From positions 1 to 20,761 of IMG/VR virus record IMGVR_UViG_3300049893_000470: a DNA stretch of 20,761 nucleotides; one strand, written 5' to 3'. A program made the translations under genes and the position numbers. The stretch comes from a virus. The notes below the pieces were generated by a model. The model saw nothing but the letters and a program-made list of their open reading frames with translations, had not been told where the DNA came from and searched no databases. Shown here in pieces: positions 1-20,761 of the stretch. The first letter of the stretch is position 1, and every line of letters begins with the position of its first letter.

Positions 1-1487
1 TATATTCTGAAGTCATCTATTAGTCCTGTATAATTAGCATCTCCTCCGCCTATTCTCCAACTTGAAGCAATAGCATTAGTGCCTGTTTGACTAAATGTTC
101 CTGTACCTTGAGATGCATTATTTATAAAAAATTCCATTGCAGTATTATTATAATTACAACATATCCAGTACCATGTATCATAAGTTAATGTTCCTAAAGA
201 GTTTATAGTAGTATTGCCAACACCTGCTTTATCTATAACAAAACTTATTTTACTAGTAGCTAGTTGTTGTGAATATACTCTGAATTCATTAGCAGTACCG
301 GTGCCTTTTCCTGCATATATAAATGAGGGCGATGCTGGTAGAACATTCCACTTATACCAGAAACATATACCGAAAGTATCTGTACGATTAAAAGCGATGT
401 TTGTAGTATCCACATTTGCGTATTGTGTAGTTGCAGTATACTTTATTGCTTTATCTATCTTTCCGATTTGATTAATTGATAATGCTCCTGTAACTTCTGC
501 ATTTGATGCATTACTTCCTGAATCAGATAATACTGTTCCAGATGTTTCATTAAATTTATAGTGTCTAGTTGGCTGAGTACCTGAAGCAGGAGTAGTTGTA
601 CTGGTTCCTAAATAACTACCATCTAATAGTACTCCATGTGCTATGCTTGTTGGATAAAATCTTCCAGCACCTGAATTATATAAATTTGTTATATCTGATT
701 GTGATAATCTTCTTTTCCACATACATACTTCATCTATATCTCCATCAAAGAAGTTTGTTCCTTCAGGATTCCTGCCTATATTCCAATTATATGTACTCGA
801 AGAATCTATCCATGAACTATTTATACTTACTGCTTGTTGTGTTCCGTTAACATAAAATTTAACTAAAGTATCTGATGGTCCTCCCCATGTACCTACTATA
901 TGTGCCCATGAGCCTAGTGTAGCATTATTATTTGCGGAAGCAGTTCTGAATGTTGAATCATAAACCATCATTCCAAACTTAGAGGATACTAGACCTAGAC
1001 TAACTACTGAGTTACCTTTACTAATTACTTTACCATTACCTGCAGAATAAGAACTAGGCTTAACCCATGCAGACAATGTTATACCAGAGGAACCAGGAGT
1101 AACATTAGCACTTGAAGACATACTTATATAACTACTTGTACCATTAAATCTATAAGCACTACCATCTATACCTGAACTTATTAAGGTAGCACCGGATACT
1201 GTACCAGTTAATCCATACTGACCAGAATCATTAGCATTACCATTGAATTGTAAAACTAAAGCAAGACTATTATCGAAATCTAAATTACTTAAAACTGGAT
1301 GGTCAAGGACAAAAGCATTACCTAAATCTCTTGAGTAAACATAATAAGAACCAGATAAACCACTGGATTCCATACTAACTAAATTAATATCAGATTTACT
1401 ATCAGTCTCTATAAAGTCCTGCTTGTAAGAGTTAGCACTAGCCATACTCTTACCCATTAATGAACCTAAATCAGTTGCATTACTCAT
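1..1487 (-). CDS. Tail adhesin with two LamG domains (3' end cut by window)
   Basis: The frame is open from ATG at 1487 to the window edge, giving 495 codons without a stop, so the C-terminus is missing. Two concanavalin/LamG-type beta-sandwich domains are visible. The first, about residues 72-262, runs from LALVLQFNGNANDSG through ITLSAWVKP and WAHIVGTW to FDGDIDEVCMWKRRLS. The second, about 308 to the edge, starts at RHYKFNETSG and ends GLIDDFRI. LamG folds bind glycans or proteins, and on tailed viruses they usually sit on the tail tip, so a receptor-binding or adhesin role is inferred. The start is set by a GAGAGG motif 5 bases upstream, and the ATG shares a TAATG overlap with the stop of the preceding tail gene. 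The first 70 residues probably anchor it to the tail. The fold is fairly certain; the ligand is unknown. Confidence 0.85.
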   Translation of the reverse strand, partial: MSNATDLGSLMGKSMASANSYKQDFIETDSKSDINLVSMESSGLSGSYYVYSRDLGNAFVLDHPVLSNLDFDNSLALVLQFNGNANDSGQYGLTGTVSGATLISSGIDGSAYRFNGTSSYISMSSSANVTPGSSGITLSAWVKPSSYSAGNGKVISKGNSVVSLGLVSSKFGMMVYDSTFRTASANNNATLGSWAHIVGTWGGPSDTLVKFYVNGTQQAVSINSSWIDSSSTYNWNIGRNPEGTNFFDGDIDEVCMWKRRLSQSDITNLYNSGAGRFYPTSIAHGVLLDGSYLGTSTTTPASGTQPTRHYKFNETSGTVLSDSGSNASNAEVTGALSINQIGKIDKAIKYTATTQYANVDTTNIAFNRTDTFGICFWYKWNVLPASPSFIYAGKGTGTANEFRVYSQQLATSKISFVIDKAGVGNTTINSLGTLTYDTWYWICCNYNNTAMEFFINNASQGTGTFSQTGTNAIASSWRIGGGDANYTGLIDDFRI

Positions 1488-9532: not shown

Positions 9533-9801
9533 TATTGAATCAACCCAATTTGTTGTCTATAAGCTTTAATTGCTCCTGAACGATGTTCTTCTTTTGTAAA
9601 TACTGCACAAGACCAGAAGTCAAAAGTATAATCATTCTTATTTACTCCTGCTTTTGTACAAAAATTGTCTATTAATGCCATAGCTTCTATAAATTCAGGT
9701 AAATCTGTAGGGTATTGTCCACCATTAGTTAAGAACCAATTATATAAAGTGGTTCTTAGTGCCTGTGCATCACTTTTAGTTTTACCATTTAGTATAATCA
9801 T
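9532..9801 (-). CDS. Hypothetical 89-residue protein
   Basis: A small soluble protein (IILNGKTKSDAQALRTTLYNWFLTNGG, then LPEFIEAMALIDNFCTKAGVNKNDYTFDFW) that looks mainly helical, with two Cys residues (48 and 65). I do not recognise the family. Its ATG overlaps the fibre stop as ATGA, with GGTGAAG upstream, and its own stop overlaps the next gene, so it is certainly translated within this operon. Lying between the fibre and the jelly-roll protein, it could be a fibre-assembly factor or a small structural joint. Confidence 0.65.
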   Translation of the reverse strand: MIILNGKTKSDAQALRTTLYNWFLTNGGQYPTDLPEFIEAMALIDNFCTKAGVNKNDYTFDFWSCAVFTKEEHRSGAIKAYRQQIGLIQ

Positions 9802-12209
9802 ACGTTCTTCACCGCTTGAATAGTTGTTATAATACTTGATACTGCTCCACTACATTGTATAGTCCATGGATTGTTTGCAGTTGTTTGTGTAAAAGGTGTT
9901 TGGAATACTGCACCTGTAGTAGCACTTCCTGGACATGTTAAAGTAAGTCTTACAGTTCCAGTAGTAGCATCTCTTATATCTACATTAACAGGAGTACTAG
10001 TACTCGTATTAGATACTGTTATTGCAGTTAAGTCTTGGAATACTCCAGAACCTCCTGCAGCTAAAATACTTGTTTCAGTAGCAGATGCTAGGACTAAACG
10101 ATTCTGTACTACTAAATCTCTTACGTGAGTATTAGAAGTAACTAATCTTCCAACATCATCAGTCATTATATTTACTAAATCTCCACTTGCAGATACTGCT
10201 GTAGGATTTGCTTGAGCGGCTCTTCCTCCTATATTTATAGGATTAAGATTAACTGCAGCATCAACAAGAGTACCACCACCTGTAAGTGAAGATACTGTTG
10301 TAGCAGTTGTTAAAGTACCAATATTCCATGTCCCAGATTGTGAAGCTGGAACTACATCATCAGTTGCTATTGTGACTCTTTGAGTACCTGCACTTCTAGT
10401 ACCTGTACCCATAGCTATAGGTTGACCATTCATACTCGTTACAGTATTTAATGTAGCAATATTCCAAGTACCTGACTGGGTAACTGGAATACTAGCATTT
10501 GTGACGTATGAACTTGGATTAAGTACTGAAGTATTTAGTGTAGCAGCAATACTAACTGGCTGTGTACTCTGCCAAAATGTTCCTGTTACAGGAGTTGTTG
10601 GCATAGATGTGTTAGTTATATAAGTACTTGCATTAAGTACACTGGTATTAACAGTTGCAGCCAATGATACTGGTTGAGTTGCCTGATAGAATGTTCCAGT
10701 AACTGGAATACTTGTATTTGTTATAAATGAACTTGTATTAACTAATCCACTTATAGCAACAGTACTTCCCGTTCCAAGATTTGCCGTAACTGTACCACTT
10801 ATTGGCTGAGTTGTCTGCCAGAAAGTACCAGTGACTGGTATACTAGCATTAGTTATGTATGAACTAGGATTAAGAGTACTTGAATTAATTGTACCACTTA
10901 CTACCCACGGACTAGTAGATTGTGTTACTGCTACAGTACCAGTAACATCCGCTGATAAAGCTCCACTAGGATTAACTTTAACATCAACCCAAGAACCTCC
11001 ACCAACAGTAGTATGACCTTGTAAAGCAGCCATGACAACTTGACCAGTATCTTGGTCAGTTAAGGCACTACCAATAAACTTTCTAGTTTGTCTAACAGCA
11101 AATGGTTGAGCAAAAGCAGAAACTCTAAAAGTTCCCTGAGCAGAAGCTCCATTAGTATAAACAAGTCTAACATAGTGAGCCTTACGACCAAAAGTAATCA
11201 TATTACCAACACTAGCAGCATAAGTAGTTTGGTCTACAAAGTCCCAATTAGAACCATCATTAGACCATTGAATCTTTAATCCATTAGCTGCAGATGCTTG
11301 GTCTGCAAATATAGTAACACTCCAAGAAGCAAAATCATTCATATAAAAAGCAGTACCAGTAAAAGTAGCATTACTACCTAAAGGAGTCGTTGTACTATTT
11401 CCAGTATCTTGAACAACTGGAGCATCTATAAAAATAGGAGTACTAGAAGTATTAATAACACTAGCAGTTACACTTCCAGAAACTGCTTGAACTGAAGGAT
11501 AAAAATAAGTACTAGGATTAAGAATGCTAGAATTAACAGTAGAACTAAAAGTAACTGGTAAACTAGAATTAGTAATATATGTACTAGGGTTTAAGATACT
11601 AGAACTTACAGTTCCAGAGAATGTTACAGCCTGAGTTGCAGGGAAATTAGTAACATAAGTAGATGGATTAAGTATGCTTGATTGCACAGTTCCAGAAAAA
11701 CTTACAGGCTGTGTAGTTTGCCAAAATGTGCCAGTAACTGCTTGACTTGCTGGAAAGTTTGTAACAAAAGTACTAGGATTTAAGATACTAGTATTGACTG
11801 TACTAGCAAGACTAACAGGTTGTGTAGATTGATAAAAAGTACCAGTAACAGGTATAGAAGCATTTGTTATATAAGTTGAAGGATTTAGTATACTAGAATT
11901 AAGAGTTCCTGATATAGTTACAGCTTGAGAAGCTGGAAAATTGGTTACGAATGTAGAAGGATTAACTATACTTGAATTAACAGAACCAGATATAACTTGA
12001 GTACCTTGAGGAATATTTCTAGTTACTAAAGCGGATTCAGAACCAACAACAGAACTAGCGACAATACAAGCATGTGTATCACTATCATAATCTTGAAGTA
12101 TCATAAAATGTTCATGTACTGAACTTCCAGAAACTGTTCTCTCATTACTTCTAACCTTCTTGCCAGTATTAGCACTATCATTTGGTAACTGTATATAAGA
12201 CTCTGTCAT
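9798..12209 (-). CDS. Large Ser/Thr-rich repeat fibre protein
   Basis: The 803-residue product starts MTESYIQLPNDSANTGKK. I chose the ATG at 12209 because GGTGA lies 5 bases upstream; an earlier in-frame start would lie across the previous gene's stop. Residues 79-250 and 436-590 hold tandem repeats built on SILNPSTYVTN and VTGTFWQTTQPVS. Residues 262-370 form a discoidin-like beta-sandwich (SWSVTIFADQASAANGLKIQ, SNDGSNWDFVDQTT, HYVRLVYTNGA, FRVSAF). The C-terminus, 715-803, is another beta-sandwich (TSTPVNVDIRDATTGTVRLTL, then TANNPWTIQCSGAV). Such repeats with periodic QPVS/TGTF strands occur in phage fibres and form trimeric beta-stalks. The location just after capsid and decoration genes favours a head or neck fibre, but a tail fibre cannot be excluded. 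Confidence 0.8.
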   Translation of the reverse strand: MTESYIQLPNDSANTGKKVRSNERTVSGSSVHEHFMILQDYDSDTHACIVASSVVGSESALVTRNIPQGTQVISGSVNSSIVNPSTFVTNFPASQAVTISGTLNSSILNPSTYITNASIPVTGTFYQSTQPVSLASTVNTSILNPSTFVTNFPASQAVTGTFWQTTQPVSFSGTVQSSILNPSTYVTNFPATQAVTFSGTVSSSILNPSTYITNSSLPVTFSSTVNSSILNPSTYFYPSVQAVSGSVTASVINTSSTPIFIDAPVVQDTGNSTTTPLGSNATFTGTAFYMNDFASWSVTIFADQASAANGLKIQWSNDGSNWDFVDQTTYAASVGNMITFGRKAHYVRLVYTNGASAQGTFRVSAFAQPFAVRQTRKFIGSALTDQDTGQVVMAALQGHTTVGGGSWVDVKVNPSGALSADVTGTVAVTQSTSPWVVSGTINSSTLNPSSYITNASIPVTGTFWQTTQPISGTVTANLGTGSTVAISGLVNTSSFITNTSIPVTGTFYQATQPVSLAATVNTSVLNASTYITNTSMPTTPVTGTFWQSTQPVSIAATLNTSVLNPSSYVTNASIPVTQSGTWNIATLNTVTSMNGQPIAMGTGTRSAGTQRVTIATDDVVPASQSGTWNIGTLTTATTVSSLTGGGTLVDAAVNLNPINIGGRAAQANPTAVSASGDLVNIMTDDVGRLVTSNTHVRDLVVQNRLVLASATETSILAAGGSGVFQDLTAITVSNTSTSTPVNVDIRDATTGTVRLTLTCPGSATTGAVFQTPFTQTTANNPWTIQCSGAVSSIITTIQAVKNV
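10440..10904 (-). repeat. Second fibre repeat block
   Basis: Fibre residues 436-590 carry further degenerate copies of the same unit (SSTLNPSSYITN, TGTFWQTTQPIS, TGTFYQATQPVS, NTSVLNASTYITN, TGTFWQSTQPVS). The copies diverge more from each other than those in the first block and end in TQSGTWNIATLN, a motif repeated once more at about residues 623-633. Confidence 0.75.
11460..11975 (-). repeat. First fibre repeat block
   Basis: Fibre residues 79-250 consist of tandem units starting at S-I-L/V-N-P-S-T. Successive spacings are about 26, 35, 37, 26 and 24 residues. The longer units contain an extra segment of about 11 residues, TGTFWQTTQPV or TGTFYQSTQPV. DNA copies are similar but not identical, which allows gain and loss of units by recombination. 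Confidence 0.8.
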
Positions 12210-12213
12210 TGTT

Positions 12214-12414
12214 TCACCTTGGACCAAAGAAGCCCATATAAATAAAATGTACGATTGTACTTCCAGAAGGACTTAATCCCTCGGTAGTCATCTTCATACT
12301 TAGTGGAGGACCATACCAATTCCAGTCCCACTCACTCGGAATAATACTAGGAGCTACGAACTCCATAGTTAATGGAAATGGAAAAGCATCGTTTAAATAC
12401 CAATTAGTTTCCAT
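12214..12414 (-). CDS. Trp-rich 66-residue protein
   Basis: A short protein with five Trp/Tyr-rich spots (NWYLNDAFPFPLTMEFVAP, EWDWNWYGPPLSMKM) and a C-terminal TIVHFIYMGFFGPR. It is not recognised. The aromatic and proline content fits a small structural piece or decoration subunit rather than an enzyme, and there is no clear signal peptide or full membrane segment. AGGTG lies before the ATG. Its TGA stop lies inside the GGTGA ribosome-binding site of the fibre gene, so the two are tightly coupled, suggesting a link to fibre attachment or folding. Confidence 0.65.
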   Translation of the reverse strand: METNWYLNDAFPFPLTMEFVAPSIIPSEWDWNWYGPPLSMKMTTEGLSPSGSTIVHFIYMGFFGPR

Positions 12415-12916: not shown

Positions 12917-13834
12917 TTATGCGTCGTAAGACTCAATAGTACATATACCATTAGCTCTTAAAGTTGCTACGTCCCATTCTTCTACACCAACAAAGTCAGT
13001 ATATCTTCCTAGTTCGAATCTTTGAGAACGAATTGCTGGATTTGCTTTTATACAGAATCCAAATGGTGATTCACCACTAAGGTCCATTCCTAACATAATT
13101 GCTTTTGACTTACTTGATGCTGGAGTGATTAATGTTGAGTAAACAACTGTTAATCCTGCAATTTGTTTTAATTCTCCGCCAAGTACAGTTTCTCTTCCAC
13201 CATATTGTGATGCATCTCTGAAAGCTGCATTTTGCATAAGATGTCCAAGTTGTCCTGGAGATACAATTAGTATTCTAGGTACTAATTTATCTTTTCTTAT
13301 TTCAGTCATAGCATTTACGATGTCATCGTAATCTATTTTATCAGATGTAGTTATCAATGAAGATAAAACACCATTTGCAGTTACTGTATTTCCTGCAGTT
13401 GTTTGAAGTTCTGAAATTGCATCAGTATCTCTTTTTAATGCTAAAGCATATCCGATTTTTCTAGTCATATCACTAGCAACATCATAGAATGCTCTTCTAG
13501 CTTCCTTGTCAGAAAGTTGGTAAGCAAATGCGTATTCTGTTGGAGTAAATATAACTTGAGTTACTGCGTAAGCTGCGATTGTTACATCGTTACTTTCTAG
13601 TACTGCTGCTGCAGCTGCTGGAGCTGAATTAACTGTTACATTCAATGTGTCTCCTGGTGCTCCTAGTAAATCATTATATACTTTTGCGTATCTAGATACT
13701 ATGATTGTATCTTCTACATGTCTTAATACTTGTGTATTCCATACATCTGGATTTATATAACCTGCAGCTGTTGCTGTAGATTGGAATCCATTACTACCTA
13801 TTGCGTTCATTACGAACTCTTTAAAATTTTCCAT
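12917..13834 (-). CDS. Major capsid protein (HK97 fold)
   Basis: A 305-residue protein starting MENFKEFVMNAIG. The ATG at 13834 has GAGGTTGA upstream and is preferred to a TTG three codons earlier. The start resembles short HK97-fold capsid proteins: INPDVWNTQVLRHVEDTIIVSRYAKVYNDLLGAPGDTLNV, then VTQVIFTPTEYAFAYQLSDKEARRAFYDVASDMTRKIGYALALKRD (spine helix). Further on is DDIVNAMTEIRKDKLVPRILIVSPGQLGHLMQNAAFRDASQYG, with LGGELKQIAGLTVVYSTL, and at the end the CIKANPAIRSQRFELGRYTDFVGVEEWDVATLRANG strand. There is no long N-terminal delta domain; a separate scaffold-like gene lies just upstream. A strong terminator follows. Confidence 0.92.
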   Translation of the reverse strand: MENFKEFVMNAIGSNGFQSTATAAGYINPDVWNTQVLRHVEDTIIVSRYAKVYNDLLGAPGDTLNVTVNSAPAAAAAVLESNDVTIAAYAVTQVIFTPTEYAFAYQLSDKEARRAFYDVASDMTRKIGYALALKRDTDAISELQTTAGNTVTANGVLSSLITTSDKIDYDDIVNAMTEIRKDKLVPRILIVSPGQLGHLMQNAAFRDASQYGGRETVLGGELKQIAGLTVVYSTLITPASSKSKAIMLGMDLSGESPFGFCIKANPAIRSQRFELGRYTDFVGVEEWDVATLRANGICTIESYDA

Positions 13835-13857
13835 CTTGTTCAACCTCGTTGTTATTT

Positions 13858-14313
13858 CTATTTTTTAAAATACCAGTTTGGTAAATTAAAATATCTTCTA
13901 AACTCTTCAGCACTCTGCTTTTCAATTTCAGCATAATTCAACTTAGATACATCCACTTCTTTGCCATCAATAATCTTTATATTAGGATTACTGGATGCCT
14001 CAAAAGGACTTTGAGTATTAACAATACCTTTACGTGAAGCTTCTAATTCTTGTAATCTCTTCTCGAATGCTTCTTGTTGTGACTTCAATTTAGCTTCCTG
14101 GTCTTGTCTTATACTCTCTAATTCTTTATTAGTCTTATCTAATTGTTCTTTTAACTTATCTGACTCCATCTTTTCAGTCATCTCTTTACGAACCTTATCT
14201 TCTATCTCTTTAGCTCGTTGTTCAGATAACTGATTTAATGCTTCAGCCTTATTCTTAAGTACTTCTGCTTCTATAGCCTTTATTTCTTCTGCTGTAACAC
14301 CTTTAGTTTCCAT
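13858..14313 (-). CDS. Scaffold-like coiled-coil protein
   Basis: A 151-residue, highly charged protein directly before the capsid gene, the classic place for the scaffold. Residues about 8-100 form a long Glu/Lys/Gln-rich coiled coil (IKAIEAEVLKNKAEALNQLS, then KLKEQLDKTNKELESIRQDQ, then FEKRLQELEASRKG). The C-terminal section after residue 110 (IIDGKEVDVSKLNYAEIEKQSAEEFRRYFNLPNWYFKK) is basic and aromatic, a likely capsid-binding end. GAGGTAAC lies before the start, which lies inside the end of the preceding gene. It is expected to be removed from the procapsid, probably by the protease encoded upstream. Confidence 0.82.
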   Translation of the reverse strand: METKGVTAEEIKAIEAEVLKNKAEALNQLSEQRAKEIEDKVRKEMTEKMESDKLKEQLDKTNKELESIRQDQEAKLKSQQEAFEKRLQELEASRKGIVNTQSPFEASSNPNIKIIDGKEVDVSKLNYAEIEKQSAEEFRRYFNLPNWYFKK

Positions 14314-14713
14314 TTTCTGTTACCTCTTCTTTGTTCTCTTCAATCCATTTTAGAACCCTATCCTTTTCTTTAGTAAGTGATTCTAATTGAGCATTAACTG
14401 CATTAACTTGTTCTTGTAGTCTCATCTTGAGCATTCCAAATTCCATCATCTTCTTTTCATGATTTAATTTATTAAGCTCTTTTAGTACTACATGATATTC
14501 TTCTGTAGTCTCAAATTCCCAAGTAGGCTTTATAATCTTAAAATGATTTAAAGCAATCTCAACCTGTTTATTTGTTAATTCAATCTCTTTATCCATCATA
14601 TCTTGACGTACCTTAATATCAGGTATCTGTCTAGTAGCTAAATCTATTTCTCTATTAAGATTTGCTAGATGTCGTTCTTTGTTCTGTAATTCTCTCTGTT
14701 TCTCTTCATTCAT
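14303..14713 (-). CDS. Coiled-coil protein before the scaffold gene
   Basis: A protein of 136 residues beginning MNEEKQRELQNKERHLANLN. The ATG at 14713 is chosen because GGTGA lies 5 bases upstream; a longer version would overlap the preceding glycosyltransferase. Two long helices (residues about 2-60 and 75-130) flank a short WEFETTEEYH segment, giving a prefoldin-like hairpin of coiled coils. It overlaps the scaffold gene at its 3' end. The family is not recognised. By position it may be a second scaffold or a capsid-assembly chaperone. Confidence 0.75.
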   Translation of the reverse strand: MNEEKQRELQNKERHLANLNREIDLATRQIPDIKVRQDMMDKEIELTNKQVEIALNHFKIIKPTWEFETTEEYHVVLKELNKLNHEKKMMEFGMLKMRLQEQVNAVNAQLESLTKEKDRVLKWIEENKEEVTENGN

Positions 14714-14724
14714 TTCATTCACCT

Positions 14725-15438
14725 TTATCTGTCTTGTACAAATGCCCAATCACTCGGGTAATGTTTGACTATAAAATTGGTATCAACATAAACTGGAATC
14801 TTATTATTATGCAAGTCCATGTAATAATATACATCTGAATGTTTGTTATCAAATCTCTCGTCATGCCAGAAAGAGAATCTTTCAATAATATCTCTCCTGA
14901 ACACAGTGCATCCTAATCCCATACCATGAACTTGTCTAAGTCCTGTATTAAGGAATCCTGGAACTTCTTGTAATGTAATTAATCTAGTACCATTAGCATC
15001 AACTTCAGGCTTGTATTCAGTAAAGAATATACAGGGTACTTCTAGATTTTGTTGGTGGTCCTTAAGATAATAAGTTGCTCCAACAACAGGTAATTCATAA
15101 CTTATAAGTCTAGAAATAGCGTCAGGAGTTGGTATAATATCGGATTCAATGAACATTAAATAATCATATCCTTCACTTAATACCTTTTCTCTTGCCCAGT
15201 TCTGTGCATTACATAATGCTTGTCTGGAATTCTGTCCTCTTGGAACGTGAACAACCTTTGCTCCACGTCTCCTCAAGAGACTTAAATAACTGTCCCCTTT
15301 GCTATTATCTATATAAATATAATCGTAATTTGGATAATCTAACTTTCTTATCGCATCCCAATGTTCTTGGAATATATAATCTTTTCCATTATATGTTGGA
15401 GATGCTACTAATACTTTCGGATACACTTTTCCAGTCAT
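14725..15438 (-). CDS. Glycosyltransferase, GT-A fold
   Basis: A 237-residue protein. The start MTGKVYPK at 15438 is chosen because AGAGGT lies just upstream and overlaps the stop of the protease gene. It has the GT-A order: VLVASPTYNGKDYI (nucleotide-binding strand), YDYIYIDNSKGD, RGQNSRQALCNAQNWAREKVLSEGYDYLMFIESDIIP with an ESD motif in place of DxD, then VVGATYYLK, and a C-terminal HSDVYYYMDLHNNKIPVYVDTNFIVKHYPSDW. It transfers a sugar from a nucleotide donor to an unknown acceptor. It lies within the head assembly genes, between the protease and the scaffold, so virion proteins are possible acceptors; cell-surface glycan or DNA bases are alternatives. Confidence 0.88.
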   Translation of the reverse strand: MTGKVYPKVLVASPTYNGKDYIFQEHWDAIRKLDYPNYDYIYIDNSKGDSYLSLLRRRGAKVVHVPRGQNSRQALCNAQNWAREKVLSEGYDYLMFIESDIIPTPDAISRLISYELPVVGATYYLKDHQQNLEVPCIFFTEYKPEVDANGTRLITLQEVPGFLNTGLRQVHGMGLGCTVFRRDIIERFSFWHDERFDNKHSDVYYYMDLHNNKIPVYVDTNFIVKHYPSDWAFVQDR

Positions 15439-15448
15439 TTCAATACCT

Positions 15449-16153
15449 CTATGCAGCAACTTTCACGATGTCTGCATTTATAAGTTTAGGATTATTAGTA
15501 AATGTAAATCCTAAGTATATAGGTTTTCTTAACCTTCCACTTGGCTCACTGTCTGCTAATGCTTCTATGCTTAATGATTTGAATTTGTCTGTATGATTCT
15601 TGTATCTCTTATCTAATGCTGTTTGTATCCAAAGTTTTCCTTTTTCTACAACAGCTTTTATACTTTTAAAAATTCCTTTTTCATTCCTTAATTCTGCTCG
15701 TATCTTATCAGTATCTCTACCGTACTTCTTTATTAAGGATGTTAATTTCTCGTGGTCTACATCTGGTAGTGTACTTCCCCAAGTGTTTATTTGACCAGCA
15801 ATATCTTGTAACTCTTCTTCAGTAAAGAATTTACCTTCCTTATTTGGTGTATTGTCTGCTAGTATAGCATCCATTACTAATTCTTCCGTCTCGGAATTCA
15901 TTACTATCTTTGGGTCTTCTGTATCCATCTCGAATGTAAATATTTCTGGCATCTCATTTGATTCAGCTACCCAAGTACCTTCTACTTGTCTGAACTTCTT
16001 TTTAATTATAAGCCAAGCTATTTCAAAAGAGTCAGCATCAGATAATCCAGCCTGTTTCTCTACATTAAATATATGTAAAAATAAAGCTAAAGCTTCTTCT
16101 GGCATTGTCTCTCGCATTACCTTTGGTAAATCATTAGTTGTGGATATTATCAT
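15449..16153 (-). CDS. ChaB domain fused to prohead protease-like domain
   Basis: A 234-residue protein; the ATG at 16153 has GTGAT upstream and lies inside the portal 3' end. Residues 8-62 match a ChaB domain (LPKVMRETMPEEALALFLHIFN, then AWLIIKKKF, then GTWV). Residues about 90-234 look like the XkdF-type or related prohead serine protease: AILADNTPNKEGKFFTEEEL, then LPDVDHE with candidate catalytic His134, then FKSLSIEA with candidate nucleophile Ser195, then LGFTFTNNPKLINADI. Such proteases cleave scaffold and capsid during maturation. Position between portal and scaffold agrees. The catalytic residues are assigned by pattern only. Confidence 0.85.
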   Translation of the reverse strand: MIISTTNDLPKVMRETMPEEALALFLHIFNVEKQAGLSDADSFEIAWLIIKKKFRQVEGTWVAESNEMPEIFTFEMDTEDPKIVMNSETEELVMDAILADNTPNKEGKFFTEEELQDIAGQINTWGSTLPDVDHEKLTSLIKKYGRDTDKIRAELRNEKGIFKSIKAVVEKGKLWIQTALDKRYKNHTDKFKSLSIEALADSEPSGRLRKPIYLGFTFTNNPKLINADIVKVAA

Positions 16154-17510
16154 CTTCAATCACGTATGGAAATTTACTATAATCTGGTAAAGATATTTCA
16201 CTATTTCTTACCATTGTTTTTGTATTAGCTTTACTTATCTGGTTAGGATTCTGACGCATTCTACTAGGCATTAAATCCTTATTCTTATTACCAATAGAAC
16301 CTTCATTACCTGTACCAACAGTATCATTAGATTCTCCTATAGCTTCTTGCATCTTTTCTGCTTCTTCTACAGGGTCCTTAAATATTTTATCAGTACTAAA
16401 AACTATGCCTTGAGATTGTAAGTATTCAGTAATAGCTTCATCACTAAACATACTATTCTTCATTATTTGAACATTCTCAAATACTTTAGTCCTAGCAGTT
16501 TCATCAAGTACTCCAAACTTAAATCTATTTAAATCATAACCTATCTTTGTAAATAAATCGAATGTAAAAACATCCTCTAATAATCTTTGAATACTTAATG
16601 TTCTAGTATTCAATGCTTGATATTGTTCTACACTATTACTTCTTCCAGAGGAATCTGGCATACCTACTGCAATAGGAGGAACTTGTAAAACCATTAATAT
16701 TTGACTATCACACCAATCCATTAACTTCATTAAAGATTCCCCTTCATCAAAAGTATTAAGTTTCTGATATATAGCATCTCCCTCAATAATTACTGGTTTA
16801 GTTTTATCTTTCTCAGAAGCTTTAAGGTAAGATACAAAATCCTTAATCTTTGCTTGACTAGCTCCTGACTTGATAACATAAAGACCTCTTAACTGATTAG
16901 TTCCAAAGAACCAAGTTAAGTACTGTCTTATATAATCTTTCAATTGAACTGTCTCATAAAGTGATTGTACATCTAATGGTTCTGCCCATACACTAGCAAT
17001 AATCTCTGATAATTTAATATGCACTATCTTATCAGGTAACCATTCAATATCTCCACGTCCACCTTGTTGTTGAACATAAGATACTATATCACCATTATCT
17101 TTAGCTTTTACTTTAGTTAATGTAGTCTCAAGAACATTTAAATCAGTAAGTTCTTCACCCTTCTTAACTATTTCAATAAATGTATTATTATAAAGGAATA
17201 AGTTGAATAAAGCCTTTCTTAAGACTAGATTAAATCTTGACTTCTCTAACTTCTTTTCTAACTCTTTAAGTCTAGATTTTCCATTAATTGGTTCTATTCT
17301 CCATCCAGATTGTAGAACCTTATCTACTAATGTAGTAATTGCTGCCTTAACAGTAGGGTCATTCTTTATTACATCCAACGCCTTATTTATATTAAAAGCA
17401 GAAGGAGTCCTTGCTATTAAGCCTTCAGTAAAAGACCTATCACCACTACCGTAGTAGTCTATCAACAAGCCTTCACTATTAGCGTTTGTTACAATATCTT
17501 TGGATTTCAT
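16134..17510 (-). CDS. Portal protein
   Basis: A 458-residue protein with the HK97/phi29-like portal order. The N-terminal region contains DPTVKAAITTLVDKVLQSGWRIEP. The stem region has RKALFNLFLYNNTFIEIVKKG and the wing has DIEWLPDKIVHIKLSE. Near residues 265-312 lies CDSQILMVLQVPPIAVGMPDSSGRSNSVEQYQALNTRTLSIQRLLE, the most conserved segment of the family. The C-terminal 70 residues are Asn/Lys-rich and likely disordered. It forms the dodecameric DNA gate. No ribosome-binding motif is visible before the ATG (the preceding bases are T-rich), unlike nearly every neighbour. Confidence 0.93.
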   Translation of the reverse strand: MKSKDIVTNANSEGLLIDYYGSGDRSFTEGLIARTPSAFNINKALDVIKNDPTVKAAITTLVDKVLQSGWRIEPINGKSRLKELEKKLEKSRFNLVLRKALFNLFLYNNTFIEIVKKGEELTDLNVLETTLTKVKAKDNGDIVSYVQQQGGRGDIEWLPDKIVHIKLSEIIASVWAEPLDVQSLYETVQLKDYIRQYLTWFFGTNQLRGLYVIKSGASQAKIKDFVSYLKASEKDKTKPVIIEGDAIYQKLNTFDEGESLMKLMDWCDSQILMVLQVPPIAVGMPDSSGRSNSVEQYQALNTRTLSIQRLLEDVFTFDLFTKIGYDLNRFKFGVLDETARTKVFENVQIMKNSMFSDEAITEYLQSQGIVFSTDKIFKDPVEEAEKMQEAIGESNDTVGTGNEGSIGNKNKDLMPSRMRQNPNQISKANTKTMVRNSEISLPDYSKFPYVIEDDNIHN

Positions 17511-17640
17511 AAGTAGAAAAAAAGTACCGCATGAACTAAGCTTACAGGTTTACTGACCCAGTTCAGAGACGGTCACCACAAATCAACAGCTACCTGCTAC
17601 CCGTTATTGGATTAATAAATTTATTATGTCCTAATGATAA
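17511..17640 (-). ncRNA. Candidate structured RNA / portal leader
   Basis: This 130-base gap has no coding potential that I can support. The part at 17525-17610 is about 48% G+C by hand count, well above its surroundings. Read on the minus strand, GCAGGT (17592-17597) can pair with ACCTGT (17544-17549), enclosing TGACC (17571-17575) paired with GGTCA (17554-17558). Seven T follow at 17523-17517. At 17613-17626 a 14-base perfect AT palindrome (TAATAAATTTATTA) precedes the G+C-rich part and might be a promoter element. A small packaging- or regulation-related RNA ending at the T-run, or a structured leader of the portal mRNA, are the two readings. The pairing is hand-drawn and covariation has not been tested. 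Confidence 0.4.
17613..17626. promoter_or_regulatory. 14-base AT palindrome
   Basis: The sequence TAATAAATTTATTA is a perfect inverted repeat located between the stop of the 69-residue gene and the G+C-rich segment before the portal. It could be a promoter (TATA-like), an operator, or simply an AT-rich spacer. Nothing else in the window shares it. Confidence 0.3.
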
Positions 17641-17850
17641 TTATTGGGTAGCTTCTGCTTTATAAACCTTTCGTTTATTCTTGAACTTTCCTGTCTTATA
17701 ATTAATGAAATTGACCTTAAAGACACTTAACTGGTTATTATCTAGATTATCAAGGTAGAATCTAGGGTTAAGTATAACTCTATCACATACCTCATTAAAG
17801 TACTCATGCTCTTCTTCTAGAGTCATGAAGTGCCATAACTTGTTATCCAT
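17641..17850 (-). CDS. Small hypothetical protein (69 residues)
   Basis: The product starts MDNKLWHFMTLEEEHEYFNEVCDRVI and ends in a basic stretch (INYKTGKFKNKRKVYKAEATQ). The frame can be read 40 codons further upstream to a TTG. I prefer the ATG at 17850 because the upstream stretch is already used, in another frame, by a convincing 41-residue gene whose stop lies 7 bases before this ATG. The segment NPRFYLDNLDNNQLSVFKVNF looks like a compact beta/alpha domain. The family is not recognised. Position between terminase and portal suggests a packaging or head-vertex helper. No strong ribosome-binding motif is seen, so coupling is likely. Confidence 0.6.
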   Translation of the reverse strand: MDNKLWHFMTLEEEHEYFNEVCDRVILNPRFYLDNLDNNQLSVFKVNFINYKTGKFKNKRKVYKAEATQ

Positions 17851-17857
17851 GTCGTAA

Positions 17858-17983
17858 CTAGTCTTCGTCTTCATCTGGGTCAAAGTAATCTTTATAATTT
17901 CCTTCAGCAGGGTTACCATAAGATAATCTATAGTATCCATTAACCTCTTTGAAAGGAACCTTTTTTGCAATCTTCCTAAGCAT
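17858..17983 (-). CDS. Overlooked 41-residue acidic-tail mini-protein
   Basis: The reading frame ATG at 17983 to TAG at 17858 encodes MLRKIAKKVPFKEVNGYYRL, then SYGNPAEGNYKDYFDPDEDED. It has a basic N-terminal half and an acidic C-terminal tail, which reads like a real small protein, while the overlapping longer frame reads poorly in this section (MQKRFLSKRL MDTIDYLMVT). The ATG overlaps the terminase stop (ATGCTTAG), so translation is probably coupled to it. The function is unknown; it could bind the terminase or portal. Confidence 0.6.
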   Translation of the reverse strand: MLRKIAKKVPFKEVNGYYRLSYGNPAEGNYKDYFDPDEDED

Positions 17984-19556
17984 ATACTGTACCATACGTG
18001 TCTCCGTCATCACTATAATCTCCTAAATCATAATATTTAAATGACTCATCTTCCTTAACATAAAAGTAACAAGACATAACAAATGAGTCAATTAAGTCAT
18101 CACTATATCCTGGAGCATGTTGAATCAATGATTGTTTAGTACCAGAACTGAATTCTAATGCTAACATCTCTGTCTTTAAATCTTCATCTACATAAGATTT
18201 TATTTCTTGCCTATTTAGTGAAGCCCTGAATGCTCCATACTTCTTTACCTTTTCTTGGCGGAAATTCATTGGATGAACATCCCAGCCTTTCTCTAACATT
18301 CTTCTTATTAAGAAGTCTCCTGCAGGACAATCATCAGGGATAATCCTTTGGATATTAAATCTCTTCATTAACTCTTCAACATCATCAAGTAAGGATAAAT
18401 CTTTTCCTACTTCATAAACCTTTTCATAAAGTCTAATAGCAATATTATCATTCCTTATAGTAGATATAGTTATTACTGTCCTACTTGTTACTTGTCCACC
18501 GAAGTCAATACCCATGTCACATTCTCCAAGATAAGAATCAAGTCTAACTAATTCTTTATCAAAACATGAACGTACTGATTCAGGATTAAAGTAAACAGCT
18601 TCACCTTTTACAAATCTACAAAAATATGCACGTTGTACCTCATCTGTTTTACCATCACGATTCATTTGCTCAATAGTCTTGGATACTGTAGCATAATATT
18701 CTGGAGCCTCTTCTTCTATAGCATCAATAGTAAACATTAACCTATCTGCAGGATGGTCATTATAATCCTCATTAGGGTCAGCTAGTCTATAAAAGAATCC
18801 ACTAGGAACCCATGGCGTTGATGTATAGATACGTATTGCGTTAGTTGAGTTCCCAGTAGGATAAACGTAATCATAATGAAATTGGTCATCCATTCTATCG
18901 GTCTTACCAGCTTCATCTTCAATAACTATAGTAAATGTTTCTCCAAGTACAATACTTGTAGGAGGATAAGATTTTATAACACTTCCTGATTTACTATCCT
19001 TAAGTAAATATTCTCCGTGTACTTTTGGATTATAAGGTTTGAATGTTACTGTTGTTGTATTATTAGGTTCTGCATCATCTAATAATTTAGAAAAGAATTT
19101 ATCTCCGAATTGTGCTTCTCCTTTGGCATCCTTATAAGTCTCTCGCATAAAAATATCTCCTGCTCTTATAAGTTTCTTCATTTCATAAAGTAACTTCTTT
19201 GCTTGAACATCAGAGGCACTAACTATACCAACTACAGTGTTATTATGCACTGTTCCTGGATATTTATTAAATACACAAGCCCAAGTACTAAGTATAGCAA
19301 CACTCATACTTTTACCAATCTGCCTTGAAGTAAGTGCTACAAATTCTTTAGTCCAGTAATCATTATTCATACTCTTGGATATTCTAGTTAATAAATCTAC
19401 TTGCCAGGAGTAAAGTTTAATGCCTAACATTTTCTCACTAAAGAGTACTACATTAGAACTACACTGTTCAAGTAGTCCTTTACCTTTCTCTGTCTGTCTA
19501 TATTCATTCATTCTTTCAATGAATACCTTGTCTACTTTTGTTTCTGTTAATGCCAT
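17976..19556 (-). CDS. terL: Terminase large subunit
   Basis: A 526-residue packaging motor. The ATPase half has a Q-type entry (YSWQVDLL, 49-56), a Walker A-like TSRQIGKS at 76-83, Walker B TIVIEDE at 209-215 with Glu215 as probable catalytic residue, and the coupling motif TSTP at 245-248. The nuclease half has the three acidic clusters of the RNase H-like fold: CDMGIDFGG with Asp347/Asp351, IPDDCPAGD with Asp408/Asp409, and GYSDDLIDS with Asp486/Asp487/Asp490. The C-terminus is acidic. It moves DNA into the procapsid through the portal and cuts it. Its ATG overlaps the stop of the preceding glycosyltransferase as TAATG, with GGAG 12 bases upstream. No small subunit is seen in the window. 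Confidence 0.96.
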   Translation of the reverse strand: MALTETKVDKVFIERMNEYRQTEKGKGLLEQCSSNVVLFSEKMLGIKLYSWQVDLLTRISKSMNNDYWTKEFVALTSRQIGKSMSVAILSTWACVFNKYPGTVHNNTVVGIVSASDVQAKKLLYEMKKLIRAGDIFMRETYKDAKGEAQFGDKFFSKLLDDAEPNNTTTVTFKPYNPKVHGEYLLKDSKSGSVIKSYPPTSIVLGETFTIVIEDEAGKTDRMDDQFHYDYVYPTGNSTNAIRIYTSTPWVPSGFFYRLADPNEDYNDHPADRLMFTIDAIEEEAPEYYATVSKTIEQMNRDGKTDEVQRAYFCRFVKGEAVYFNPESVRSCFDKELVRLDSYLGECDMGIDFGGQVTSRTVITISTIRNDNIAIRLYEKVYEVGKDLSLLDDVEELMKRFNIQRIIPDDCPAGDFLIRRMLEKGWDVHPMNFRQEKVKKYGAFRASLNRQEIKSYVDEDLKTEMLALEFSSGTKQSLIQHAPGYSDDLIDSFVMSCYFYVKEDESFKYYDLGDYSDDGDTYGTVYA

Positions 19557-20221
19557 TAGTAATGTTCTCCAATTAATATATCTGTAAATCGGTACTCATT
19601 CTCTGAACATATACGTTCATAAATATGAGCATCACTAGCCATAGTAATATCATACCAGTAATGAATCCTCTCCCATAAATCCTTAGTAGCTACTAGACTC
19701 ATCATATCAATATTTCCATAAACAGGAGGATTACCAGTCAATATAGTGAACTTAGAATAATCTCTAGGATTATCATAATATACTGTCCTGAAATTAATTA
19801 ATTGACCATTCTTCTTAATCTGTCTACCCTCAGTACTTCCAAGACCCATCATCTTAACATTACTAATAAATACTTCAATACTAGCATTTTTTAAAATAAA
19901 ATTATATAAATCTTCCAAAGCATTTGGATAATAAATATTATCCGAGTTAGTATTAATTATAAATTTACCACTAGCTTTCTGTATTCCTAAACTTCTTAGA
20001 TTATGTCCCCAAGCATTACCTCGGAATAAAGAGTTAATGAATTCTATCTTTAAATCTTTAGTATCCACTGTAGAAATATCTAGAGACCTTTCACCGTCAT
20101 GCATAATGAATACTTCGAAGTCCTTAAATGTTTGAGACTTTAGACTATTAATAAATCTTTGAAGAATATCGGTAGGAACTGTACCATCAAAATCTGTTGC
20201 AACTATAGTAAAGAATGTCAT
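19556..20221 (-). CDS. Glycosyltransferase family 2-like
   Basis: A 221-residue protein of the GT-A type. It starts MTFFTIVATDFDGTVPTDILQRFINSLKSQTFKDFEVFIMHDG, as in GT2 enzymes. It then has GHNLRSLGIQKASGKFIINTNSDNIYYP with NSDN at the DxD site, and a late SDAHIYERICSENEYRF that would hold the catalytic base region. It transfers a sugar to an acceptor that cannot be deduced. AGAGGTAAAC lies before the ATG, which overlaps the upstream stop as ATGA, and its stop overlaps the terminase start. It is thus embedded in the virion operon rather than a separate cassette. Confidence 0.87.
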   Translation of the reverse strand: MTFFTIVATDFDGTVPTDILQRFINSLKSQTFKDFEVFIMHDGERSLDISTVDTKDLKIEFINSLFRGNAWGHNLRSLGIQKASGKFIINTNSDNIYYPNALEDLYNFILKNASIEVFISNVKMMGLGSTEGRQIKKNGQLINFRTVYYDNPRDYSKFTILTGNPPVYGNIDMMSLVATKDLWERIHYWYDITMASDAHIYERICSENEYRFTDILIGEHY

Positions 20222-20761
20222 ACTGGTTTACCTCTTTTAACATGCTCAGTTAATGAGCTGACACTACTAGCATGAGACATATAGTATTCTTGTTCTTCTG
20301 TTAAGTTCTTAGTATCAATATACCAATCTAGATGTCTAGCCATATAAGGTTCATGTACTCTAAGACCATTATTTAATCTACGGAATACGAAACTTCTACG
20401 ATACATTCCGAATGTAGTATCAATAGCAGCAGGTTGAATCATAGAATCCTTAAATACAATAGTCCTATGTCCCCAGAATTGCATAATATGACTTTCTTGC
20501 ATCTCTTTCTTTAATCCAAAACATTCAGGAATATCATTAATACGCAACATAGGACCAACAACAGTACACTTATCAAAAGTTTTTAAGCAGTCAATATAGT
20601 ACTCCAAAAGTTTAGGACTAGGATTCTCTAACTCAATATCAGGGTCAGTAACAATGTAGTAATCATACTCATGAGTTAAACCATAATGAGTAATGATAGT
20701 ACCAACACTTTCACTAATATCAGCAGTATTAAATAACTCTTTATTCCTATAAATCTTATAA
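20218..20761 (-). CDS. Glycosyltransferase-like protein (5' end outside window)
   Basis: The frame stays open from the window edge (first full codon at 20760) to the stop at 20218, giving 180 residues of a partial protein whose N-terminus is missing. An internal TTG at 20607 is not the true start, because upstream codons encode a typical nucleotide-sugar site: ITHYGLTHEYDYYIVTDPDI, with TDPD as the metal-binding DxD. Downstream come TVVGPMLRINDIPE, then FGMYRRSFVFRRLNNGLRVHEPYMARHLDWYIDTKNLTEEQEYY, an acceptor-side domain seen in GT2-like enzymes. It is the first of two tandem glycosyltransferase genes before the terminase. Confidence 0.82.
   Translation of the reverse strand, partial: YKIYRNKELFNTADISESVGTIITHYGLTHEYDYYIVTDPDIELENPSPKLLEYYIDCLKTFDKCTVVGPMLRINDIPECFGLKKEMQESHIMQFWGHRTIVFKDSMIQPAAIDTTFGMYRRSFVFRRLNNGLRVHEPYMARHLDWYIDTKNLTEEQEYYMSHASSVSSLTEHVKRGKPV

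What the first reader, a model, noticed from the sequence alone, without database searches (positions are those of the whole stretch)
14725..20761. Three glycosyltransferases woven into the packaging and head operon
Two GT-A genes run directly into the terminase and a third sits between the protease and the scaffold, each translationally overlapped with structural genes. Their DxD sites differ (TDPD, NSDN, ESD), so they are not recent copies and may act in sequence. Expression timed with virion assembly suggests glycosylation of virion proteins, for example the Ser/Thr-rich fibre, although DNA-base or cell-surface modification is possible.
Basis: partly seen in the sequence, partly recalled or inferred. 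Interest (0 to 1): 0.65.

Follow-up and report, generated by a model that had tools for sequence, protein, structure and literature searches.

The report
Archaeal virus capsid-operon sugar transferase
A tailed virus that probably infects an archaeon keeps a sugar-attaching enzyme inside its capsid-building operon, unchanged in place across all relatives found and as conserved as the capsid protein itself, which suggests that it sugar-coats its own virus particle as part of assembly.

Summary
GT3 (14725-15438, -) is a core head gene. It sits between protease and scaffold in 17 of 17 contigs fetched with the capsid protein alone, and its conservation (mean pairwise identity 0.47) matches MCP (0.49) and terminase (0.46) and exceeds portal, protease and scaffold. 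GT2 and the truncated GT1 are accessory: GT2 recurs in one relative, GT1 in none. GT3 is not translationally overlapped (10- and 11-base gaps); GT1/GT2/TerL are.

New: a BRE/TATA-type archaeal promoter (CGAAA-N2-TTTATA; 20 seen against 0.4 expected, none in control phages) precedes the portal in the window and most relatives. So the host is probably archaeal, and GT3 lies in the portal-to-capsid unit, GT1/GT2 upstream of it. The GT3 profile's best PDB match is A197, the essential glycosyltransferase of archaeal virus STIV, with DxD site and catalytic base aligned.

Best explanation: GT3 glycosylates a virion protein, most likely the capsid protein; accessory enzymes vary the glycan. The fibre is not the obligate target. 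Head-operon GTs are known in mycobacteriophages; an invariant one in an archaeal tailed-virus lineage is a new variant. No glycan has been shown.

The parts
20218..20760 (-). GT1: C-terminal part of a probable GT-A glycosyltransferase, 5' end off the contig; TDPD site
   Evidence: ORF; 39% identity to L054:4650-5486; no family hit; AF2 failed
19556..20221 (-). GT2: family 2 GT-A glycosyltransferase, NSDN site; accessory, ortholog only in L010
   Evidence: PF00535 6e-12; CgT/SpsA by phmmer; L010 ortholog
17976..19556 (-). terminase large subunit
   Evidence: Terminase_6N, phrog_2
17641..17970 (-). small conserved gene after terminase (hyp109)
   Evidence: conserved in relatives
17661..17673 (-). 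predicted archaeal BRE/TATA promoter CGAAAGGTTTATA, 163 bases upstream of the portal start; only exact match in the window
16134..17510 (-). portal
   Evidence: Phage_portal 4.5e-16
15449..16159 (-). putative head protease gene (prot236) with N-terminal ChaB-like domain; protease role inferred from position
   Evidence: ChaB 2e-6; synteny
14725..15438 (-). GT3: core GT-A glycosyltransferase of the head operon; ESD metal site, HSD catalytic-base motif
14303..14713 (-). coiled-coil protein paired with GT3 in nearly all relatives
13858..14313 (-). putative scaffold
   Evidence: position before MCP, coiled-coil composition; conserved
12917..13843 (-). major capsid protein, HK97-type; favoured acceptor
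   Evidence: phrog_544 4e-19, Phage_capsid_4
9798..12227 (-).

Best explanation
GT3 is a soluble, metal-dependent GT-A glycosyltransferase made together with portal, protease, scaffold and capsid protein from an archaeal-type promoter just upstream of the portal gene. It attaches a sugar from a host nucleotide-sugar to a virion protein in the cytoplasm, most likely the major capsid protein, as a constant step of head formation in this lineage. GT1, GT2 and, in relatives, other GTs, methyltransferases and radical-SAM enzymes are interchangeable extras that would extend or cap the glycan. Shown: enzyme fold and conserved active site, invariant position, strong constraint, promoter motif. Inferred: activity, the acceptor, the role of the accessory enzymes.
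For: 17 of 17 contigs fetched with the MCP alone carry GT3 between protease and scaffold, down to 29% MCP identity. GT3 mean pairwise identity is 0.47, against MCP 0.49, TerL 0.46, portal 0.39, protease 0.34, scaffold 0.27. E98, D100, H200, D202, H226 and W231 are invariant in 23 orthologs. AF2 pLDDT 94; nearest folds COLGALT1, LH3, Mnn9, mimivirus R699, SpsA, STIV A197. The GT3 profile's best hit among 177,635 PDB sequences is STIV A197 (E 0.0057), aligning ESD with its DED and D202 with its Asp151. A197 knock-outs are inviable and the STIV MCP is glycosylated (PMC10551542). Promoter: 20 sites seen, 0.4 expected. The closest GT3 relatives in 50,697 phage records sit beside MCP or connector genes: Manatee Spring phages and a Methanobacteriales virus. 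No hydrophobic segment long enough for a membrane anchor. Precedent: mycobacteriophage head-operon GTs and glycosylated capsids.
Against: No glycan, substrate or expression data exist for this lineage. The A197 match is weak by sequence (E 0.0057) and A197's own acceptor is unproven. Fold matches include enzymes acting on polysaccharides (SpsA, TarP, hyaluronan synthase). The contigs are fragments of unknown completeness. Operon position alone does not fix the acceptor.
Confidence: 0.6

Rival explanations
1. The enzymes modify host cell-surface glycans or lipid-linked oligosaccharides late in infection (receptor masking, superinfection exclusion).
For: GT1's only relative is in a cellular polysaccharide cluster; GT2 resembles EPS and capsule GTs; environmental phages often carry such genes (PMC7029224).
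Against: GT3 is co-conserved and co-positioned with head genes and is as constrained as MCP, unlike variable conversion genes; no membrane segment in the three proteins and no flippase or GtrA-type gene recognised among the window ORFs.
Confidence: 0.17
2. The GTs glycosylate modified bases in the virus DNA just before packaging.
For: Two genes sit directly upstream of terminase; accessory paralogs in L005, L014 and L020 weakly match the TET-associated glycosyltransferase TAGT.
Against: GT3 itself gives no TAGT match, and the search of 15 contigs, the window included, found TAGT only in two others and below cut-off. No TET/JBP, thymidylate-synthase-like or C5-methylase gene in 15 contigs, three of them 42-45 kb, although these may be incomplete.
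Confidence: 0.07
3. The acceptor is specifically the Ser/Thr-rich fibre encoded after the capsid gene.
For: The 809-aa protein is 30% Ser+Thr and lies downstream on the same strand.
Against: GT3 is present in all ten contigs with a resolved MCP-to-connector interval, but a large gene fills it in only three. N-glycosylation sequons in the fibre are not clearly enriched (20 against 16.3, sd 3.4).
Confidence: 0.1
4. GT3 is a structural or chaperone protein with a glycosyltransferase fold that has lost catalysis.
For: The best fold matches include the accessory GT-like domain of LH3.
Against: Metal-site and catalytic-base residues are invariant in 23 orthologs at 40-60% identity to the window protein.
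Confidence: 0.05

Closest known systems
STIV A197 (archaeal virus glycosyltransferase, PDB 2c0n)
   Same: Small single-domain soluble GT-A enzyme of an archaeal virus; aligned metal site and catalytic base; best PDB sequence hit of the GT3 profile, VIA Z 17.1 at 22% identity.
   Different: STIV is an unrelated tailless double-jelly-roll virus. GT3 sits in an HK97-type head operon, is longer (237 aa), and lies in a lineage where its slot is invariant.
Mycobacteriophage cluster O (Corndog) and cluster J (Wanda) head-operon glycosyltransferases
   Same: GTs and methyltransferases between portal and protease or after MCP; virion glycosylation reported for Che8, Corndog and Myrna (PMC12363180).
   Different: Bacterial hosts; different slots; the Corndog-type GTs barely match the GT3 profile (6.5 bits) though Wanda gp15 does (30.9 bits). 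There the enzymes come as a cassette; here one is universal and the rest vary.
Head-module GTs of Manatee Spring phages, Microcystis phage Mel-JY34 and Methanobacteriales virus vir323 (phrog_1574-like)
   Same: Distant GT3 relatives placed one or a few genes from MCP or tail-connector genes.
   Different: About 24-34% identity over part of the protein, placed after the MCP rather than before the scaffold; function unstudied.
Collagen galactosyltransferase COLGALT1, LH3, Mnn9
   Same: Closest solved folds (Foldseek E 1e-11 to 1e-8; VIA Z 18-21); Anp1 (Mnn9-family) Pfam match.
   Different: Eukaryotic, 10-15% identity, extra domains; the LH3 match is to its accessory domain; no 2OG-Fe hydroxylase of family PF13640 in 15 contigs.

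Membership tests
GT-A glycosyltransferase family 2 (PF00535) | Profile match above curated cut-off | tested here: met
   GT2 46.2 and GT3 33 bits against 23.3. GT1 has no match.
GT-A glycosyltransferase family 2 (PF00535) | DxD-type metal site and Asp/Glu catalytic base conserved | tested here: met
   GT3 E98, D100, D202 invariant in 23 orthologs; aligned to A197 DED and Asp151
STIV A197-like virion glycosyltransferase | Sequence homology covering the catalytic motifs | tested here: inconclusive
   Best PDB hit, E 0.0057, two stretches over both motifs
STIV A197-like virion glycosyltransferase | Encoded by a virus of archaea | tested here: inconclusive
   BRE/TATA sites 20 against 0.4 expected, fixed spacer of 2, upstream of portal in most contigs, absent from control phages point to an archaeal host; the host itself was not identified
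STIV A197-like virion glycosyltransferase | Essential for infection; capsid protein glycosylated | not testable with these tools
   Needs virus culture and MS
Mycobacteriophage-type virion glycosylation genes | GT genes inside the head operon | tested here: met
   GT3 between protease and scaffold
Mycobacteriophage-type virion glycosylation genes | Glycans on capsid or tail-tube subunits | not testable with these tools
   No virions available
TAGT / DNA hypermodification glycosyltransferase | TAGT profile match of the enzyme | tested here: not met
   GT3 orthologs give no PF20691 match; accessory paralogs only
TAGT / DNA hypermodification glycosyltransferase | Partner base-modifying enzyme in the virus | tested here: inconclusive
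   No TET/JBP, thymidylate-synthase or C5-methylase match in 15 contigs, which may be fragments
GtrB-type O-antigen conversion | Membrane-anchored GT with GtrA partner | tested here: not met
   No hydrophobic segment (max 19-residue Kyte-Doolittle 0.93); no such partner recognised among the window ORFs

The most novel reading that the evidence does not exclude
Across an undescribed lineage of archaeal tailed viruses, capsid glycosylation is a built-in and obligatory step of head assembly: one invariant enzyme puts the first sugar on the capsid protein, while neighbouring, rapidly exchanged glycosyltransferases, methyltransferases and radical-SAM enzymes build strain-specific caps, giving a constant primer and a variable glycan coat.
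Probability: 0.35. Interest if true: 0.72.

Novelty: new variant of a known kind. Interest (0 to 1): 0.55.

Why it matters
Virus-encoded virion glycosylation is known from a few bacteriophages and archaeal viruses, where it looks optional or is unexplained. Here a glycosyltransferase is a fixed part of the capsid operon across a diverse, apparently archaeal tailed-virus lineage and is as constrained as the capsid protein. If true, glycosylation would be part of head assembly itself, and the acceptor question left open for STIV A197 becomes testable by expressing two or three genes together. The arrangement also separates a constant enzyme from a variable set, a natural experiment in glycan-coat diversification.

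Tried and rejected
Rfam scan of the window for an RNA in the 130-base gap before the portal: no match; the gap aligns poorly between relatives apart from the promoter. AF2 of GT1 with one homolog failed, so its fold is untested. A GT1 scan of viral contigs found nothing; a GT3 scan of genome contigs found no provirus that would name a host. tblastn of TerL, GT1 and GT3 against annotated phage records gave nothing; only a GT3 consensus found distant relatives. Cyanophage GTs that match the same family sit near baseplate genes, so head placement is not universal in the wider family. Hydroxylysine-type linkage, suggested by the COLGALT/LH3 folds, has no hydroxylase support. N-x-S/T enrichment in the fibre as a sign of an acceptor: not significant. 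dN/dS was not computed: the near-identical contig pairs differ by at most a few bases and the rest are too diverged. Corndog records AY129335 and NC_004685 are not held, so Idergollasper was used.

Full report
What is there. The window is a whole IMG/VR record of 20,761 bases. All genes that match known virus families lie on the minus strand: GT1, GT2, terminase, a small gene, portal, protease, GT3, coiled coil, scaffold, capsid, then fibre, connector and tail genes. GT2 and GT3 are family 2 GT-A enzymes by Pfam. GT1 lacks its first part and has no family match; a 39% identical Psychroserpens protein in a polysaccharide cluster is its only relative found. The three are unrelated beyond the superfamily.

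Corrections. GT1/GT2 and GT2/TerL overlap by 4 and 1 bases. GT3 does not overlap its neighbours: the protease stop ends at 15449 and the ATG is at 15438, the GT3 stop ends at 14725 and the next ATG is at 14713. Orthologs begin at the same place, and in several of them GT3 does overlap the preceding gene by 4 bases.

GT3 is core, GT1/GT2 are not. Scans with GT3 alone, a GT3 alignment, TerL and an MCP alignment brought in about two dozen related contigs. In all 17 contigs recovered through the MCP, which is blind to GT3, GT3 lies between the protease and the coiled coil/scaffold/MCP block (L033 and L034 are identical in sequence, so 16 independent). L025 also has it, although my ORF caller hid it under an antisense frame. 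GT3 diverges as slowly as MCP and terminase and more slowly than portal, protease, scaffold and coiled coil. GT2 has an ortholog only in L010, again just before terminase, behind a radical-SAM and two methyltransferase-like genes (the methyltransferase reading is by eye). GT1 has none. Other relatives carry other extras near GT3 or upstream of the portal: L014 (GT), L005 (a GT and a GT-like ORF), L015 (GT fragment), L020 (three GT-like genes with a B12 radical-SAM protein).

Archaeal promoter. The motif CGAAA-N2-TTTATA occurs 20 times against 0.4 expected in 362 kb of the lineage, only with a 2-base spacer (apart from one hit at spacer 5), and never at spacer 2 in 153 kb of control phages (counted again with a reversed-pattern control). 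It places G at -6 and A at -3 of the TATA box, the TFB preference quoted in PMC11065993. The window has one exact copy, at 17673-17661 on the minus strand, 163 bases upstream of the portal; most relatives have it or a copy with 1-3 mismatches in the same place. I infer an archaeal host, of unknown group, and separate promoters for the terminase unit (with GT1 and GT2) and the head unit (with GT3).

Enzyme. 23 orthologs keep E98, D100, H200, D202, H226 and W231. The model is confident (pLDDT 94, pTM 0.91). Nearest solved folds are collagen galactosyltransferase, Mnn9, mimivirus R699, LH3 and SpsA (Foldseek), with STIV A197 at Z 17.1; LH3 matches through its accessory domain, so the ranking does not show the acceptor type. 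By sequence profile the best of 177,635 PDB sequences is A197 (E 0.0057), aligning both the metal site and the catalytic base Asp151. In STIV, A197 is essential, D151E delays replication, and the capsid protein is glycosylated, presumably in the cytoplasm (PMC10551542; PMC4187194).

Wider relatives. In 50,697 phage records the GT3 consensus finds, below E 1e-3, only GT genes of Manatee Spring phages and a Methanobacteriales virus, all within a few genes of MCP or tail-connector genes. Their relatives include Microcystis phage Mel-JY34 (next to MCP) and gp15 of mycobacteriophage Wanda, the first of several GTs between MCP and head-tail connector; cyanophage members sit near baseplate genes instead. 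Corndog-type phages have an O-methyltransferase and GTs between portal and protease, and capsid and tail-tube glycosylation is reported for that group.

Which acceptor. The fibre is not required: GT3 is present where no large gene follows MCP. DNA is disfavoured: no base-modifying partner found and no TAGT match for GT3. The constant partners of GT3 are portal, protease, coiled coil, scaffold and MCP; MCP is the parsimonious acceptor because glycosylated MCPs are the known cases. This step is inference. Confidence is 0.6 that GT3 modifies a virion protein in assembly, most likely MCP, and lower for the constant-primer, variable-cap model (0.35).

Verdict. Real, partly as described, better founded for one gene and worse for two. 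A new variant of a known kind: virus-encoded virion glycosylation, here with one invariant head-operon enzyme in an apparently archaeal tailed-virus lineage without isolates in the collections searched.

Noticed in passing
window 17661-17673 (-): Archaeal BRE/TATA promoter motif upstream of portal, conserved in the lineage: the virus probably infects an archaeon, host group unknown.
   Followed up: yes
window 17511-17640 (-): A 130-base non-coding stretch before the portal, ending in a T-run; no Rfam match, not conserved in sequence.
   Followed up: partly
window 9798-12227 (-): Fibre-like protein built of repeated units like NSSILNPSTYITN / PVTGTFWQTTQPVS; in relatives the slot after MCP holds other large proteins or nothing.
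   Followed up: partly
window 3-1487 (-): Protein with two Laminin-G/ConA-like lectin domains (PF13385, 2e-41), a likely glycan-binding tail or adhesion protein.
   Followed up: no
L020 2378-5881: Three GT-like genes plus a B12-binding radical-SAM protein inserted between protease and GT3.
   Followed up: partly
L049 2811-4395: Another relative carries a TOD1/MUCI70-type GT-like gene and two methyltransferases outside the head operon.
   Followed up: no
L065 9354-15310 (mycobacteriophage Wanda): Several GTs, a kinase and a methyltransferase between MCP and head-tail connector, a large head-operon glycosylation cassette.
   Followed up: no
L056 7381-7980 (vir323, Methanobacteriales virus): Unannotated phrog_1574 GT in the head-tail region of an archaeal virus, the top relative of GT3 outside the lineage by profile score.
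   Followed up: partly
L041 4366-4992: ORF made of repeated TGHGAHSST-like peptides at the contig end.
   Followed up: no
L040 9660-10904 and 11971-12058: RtcB-like ORF (by eye) and a tRNA-Ser in the same contig of the lineage.
   Followed up: no
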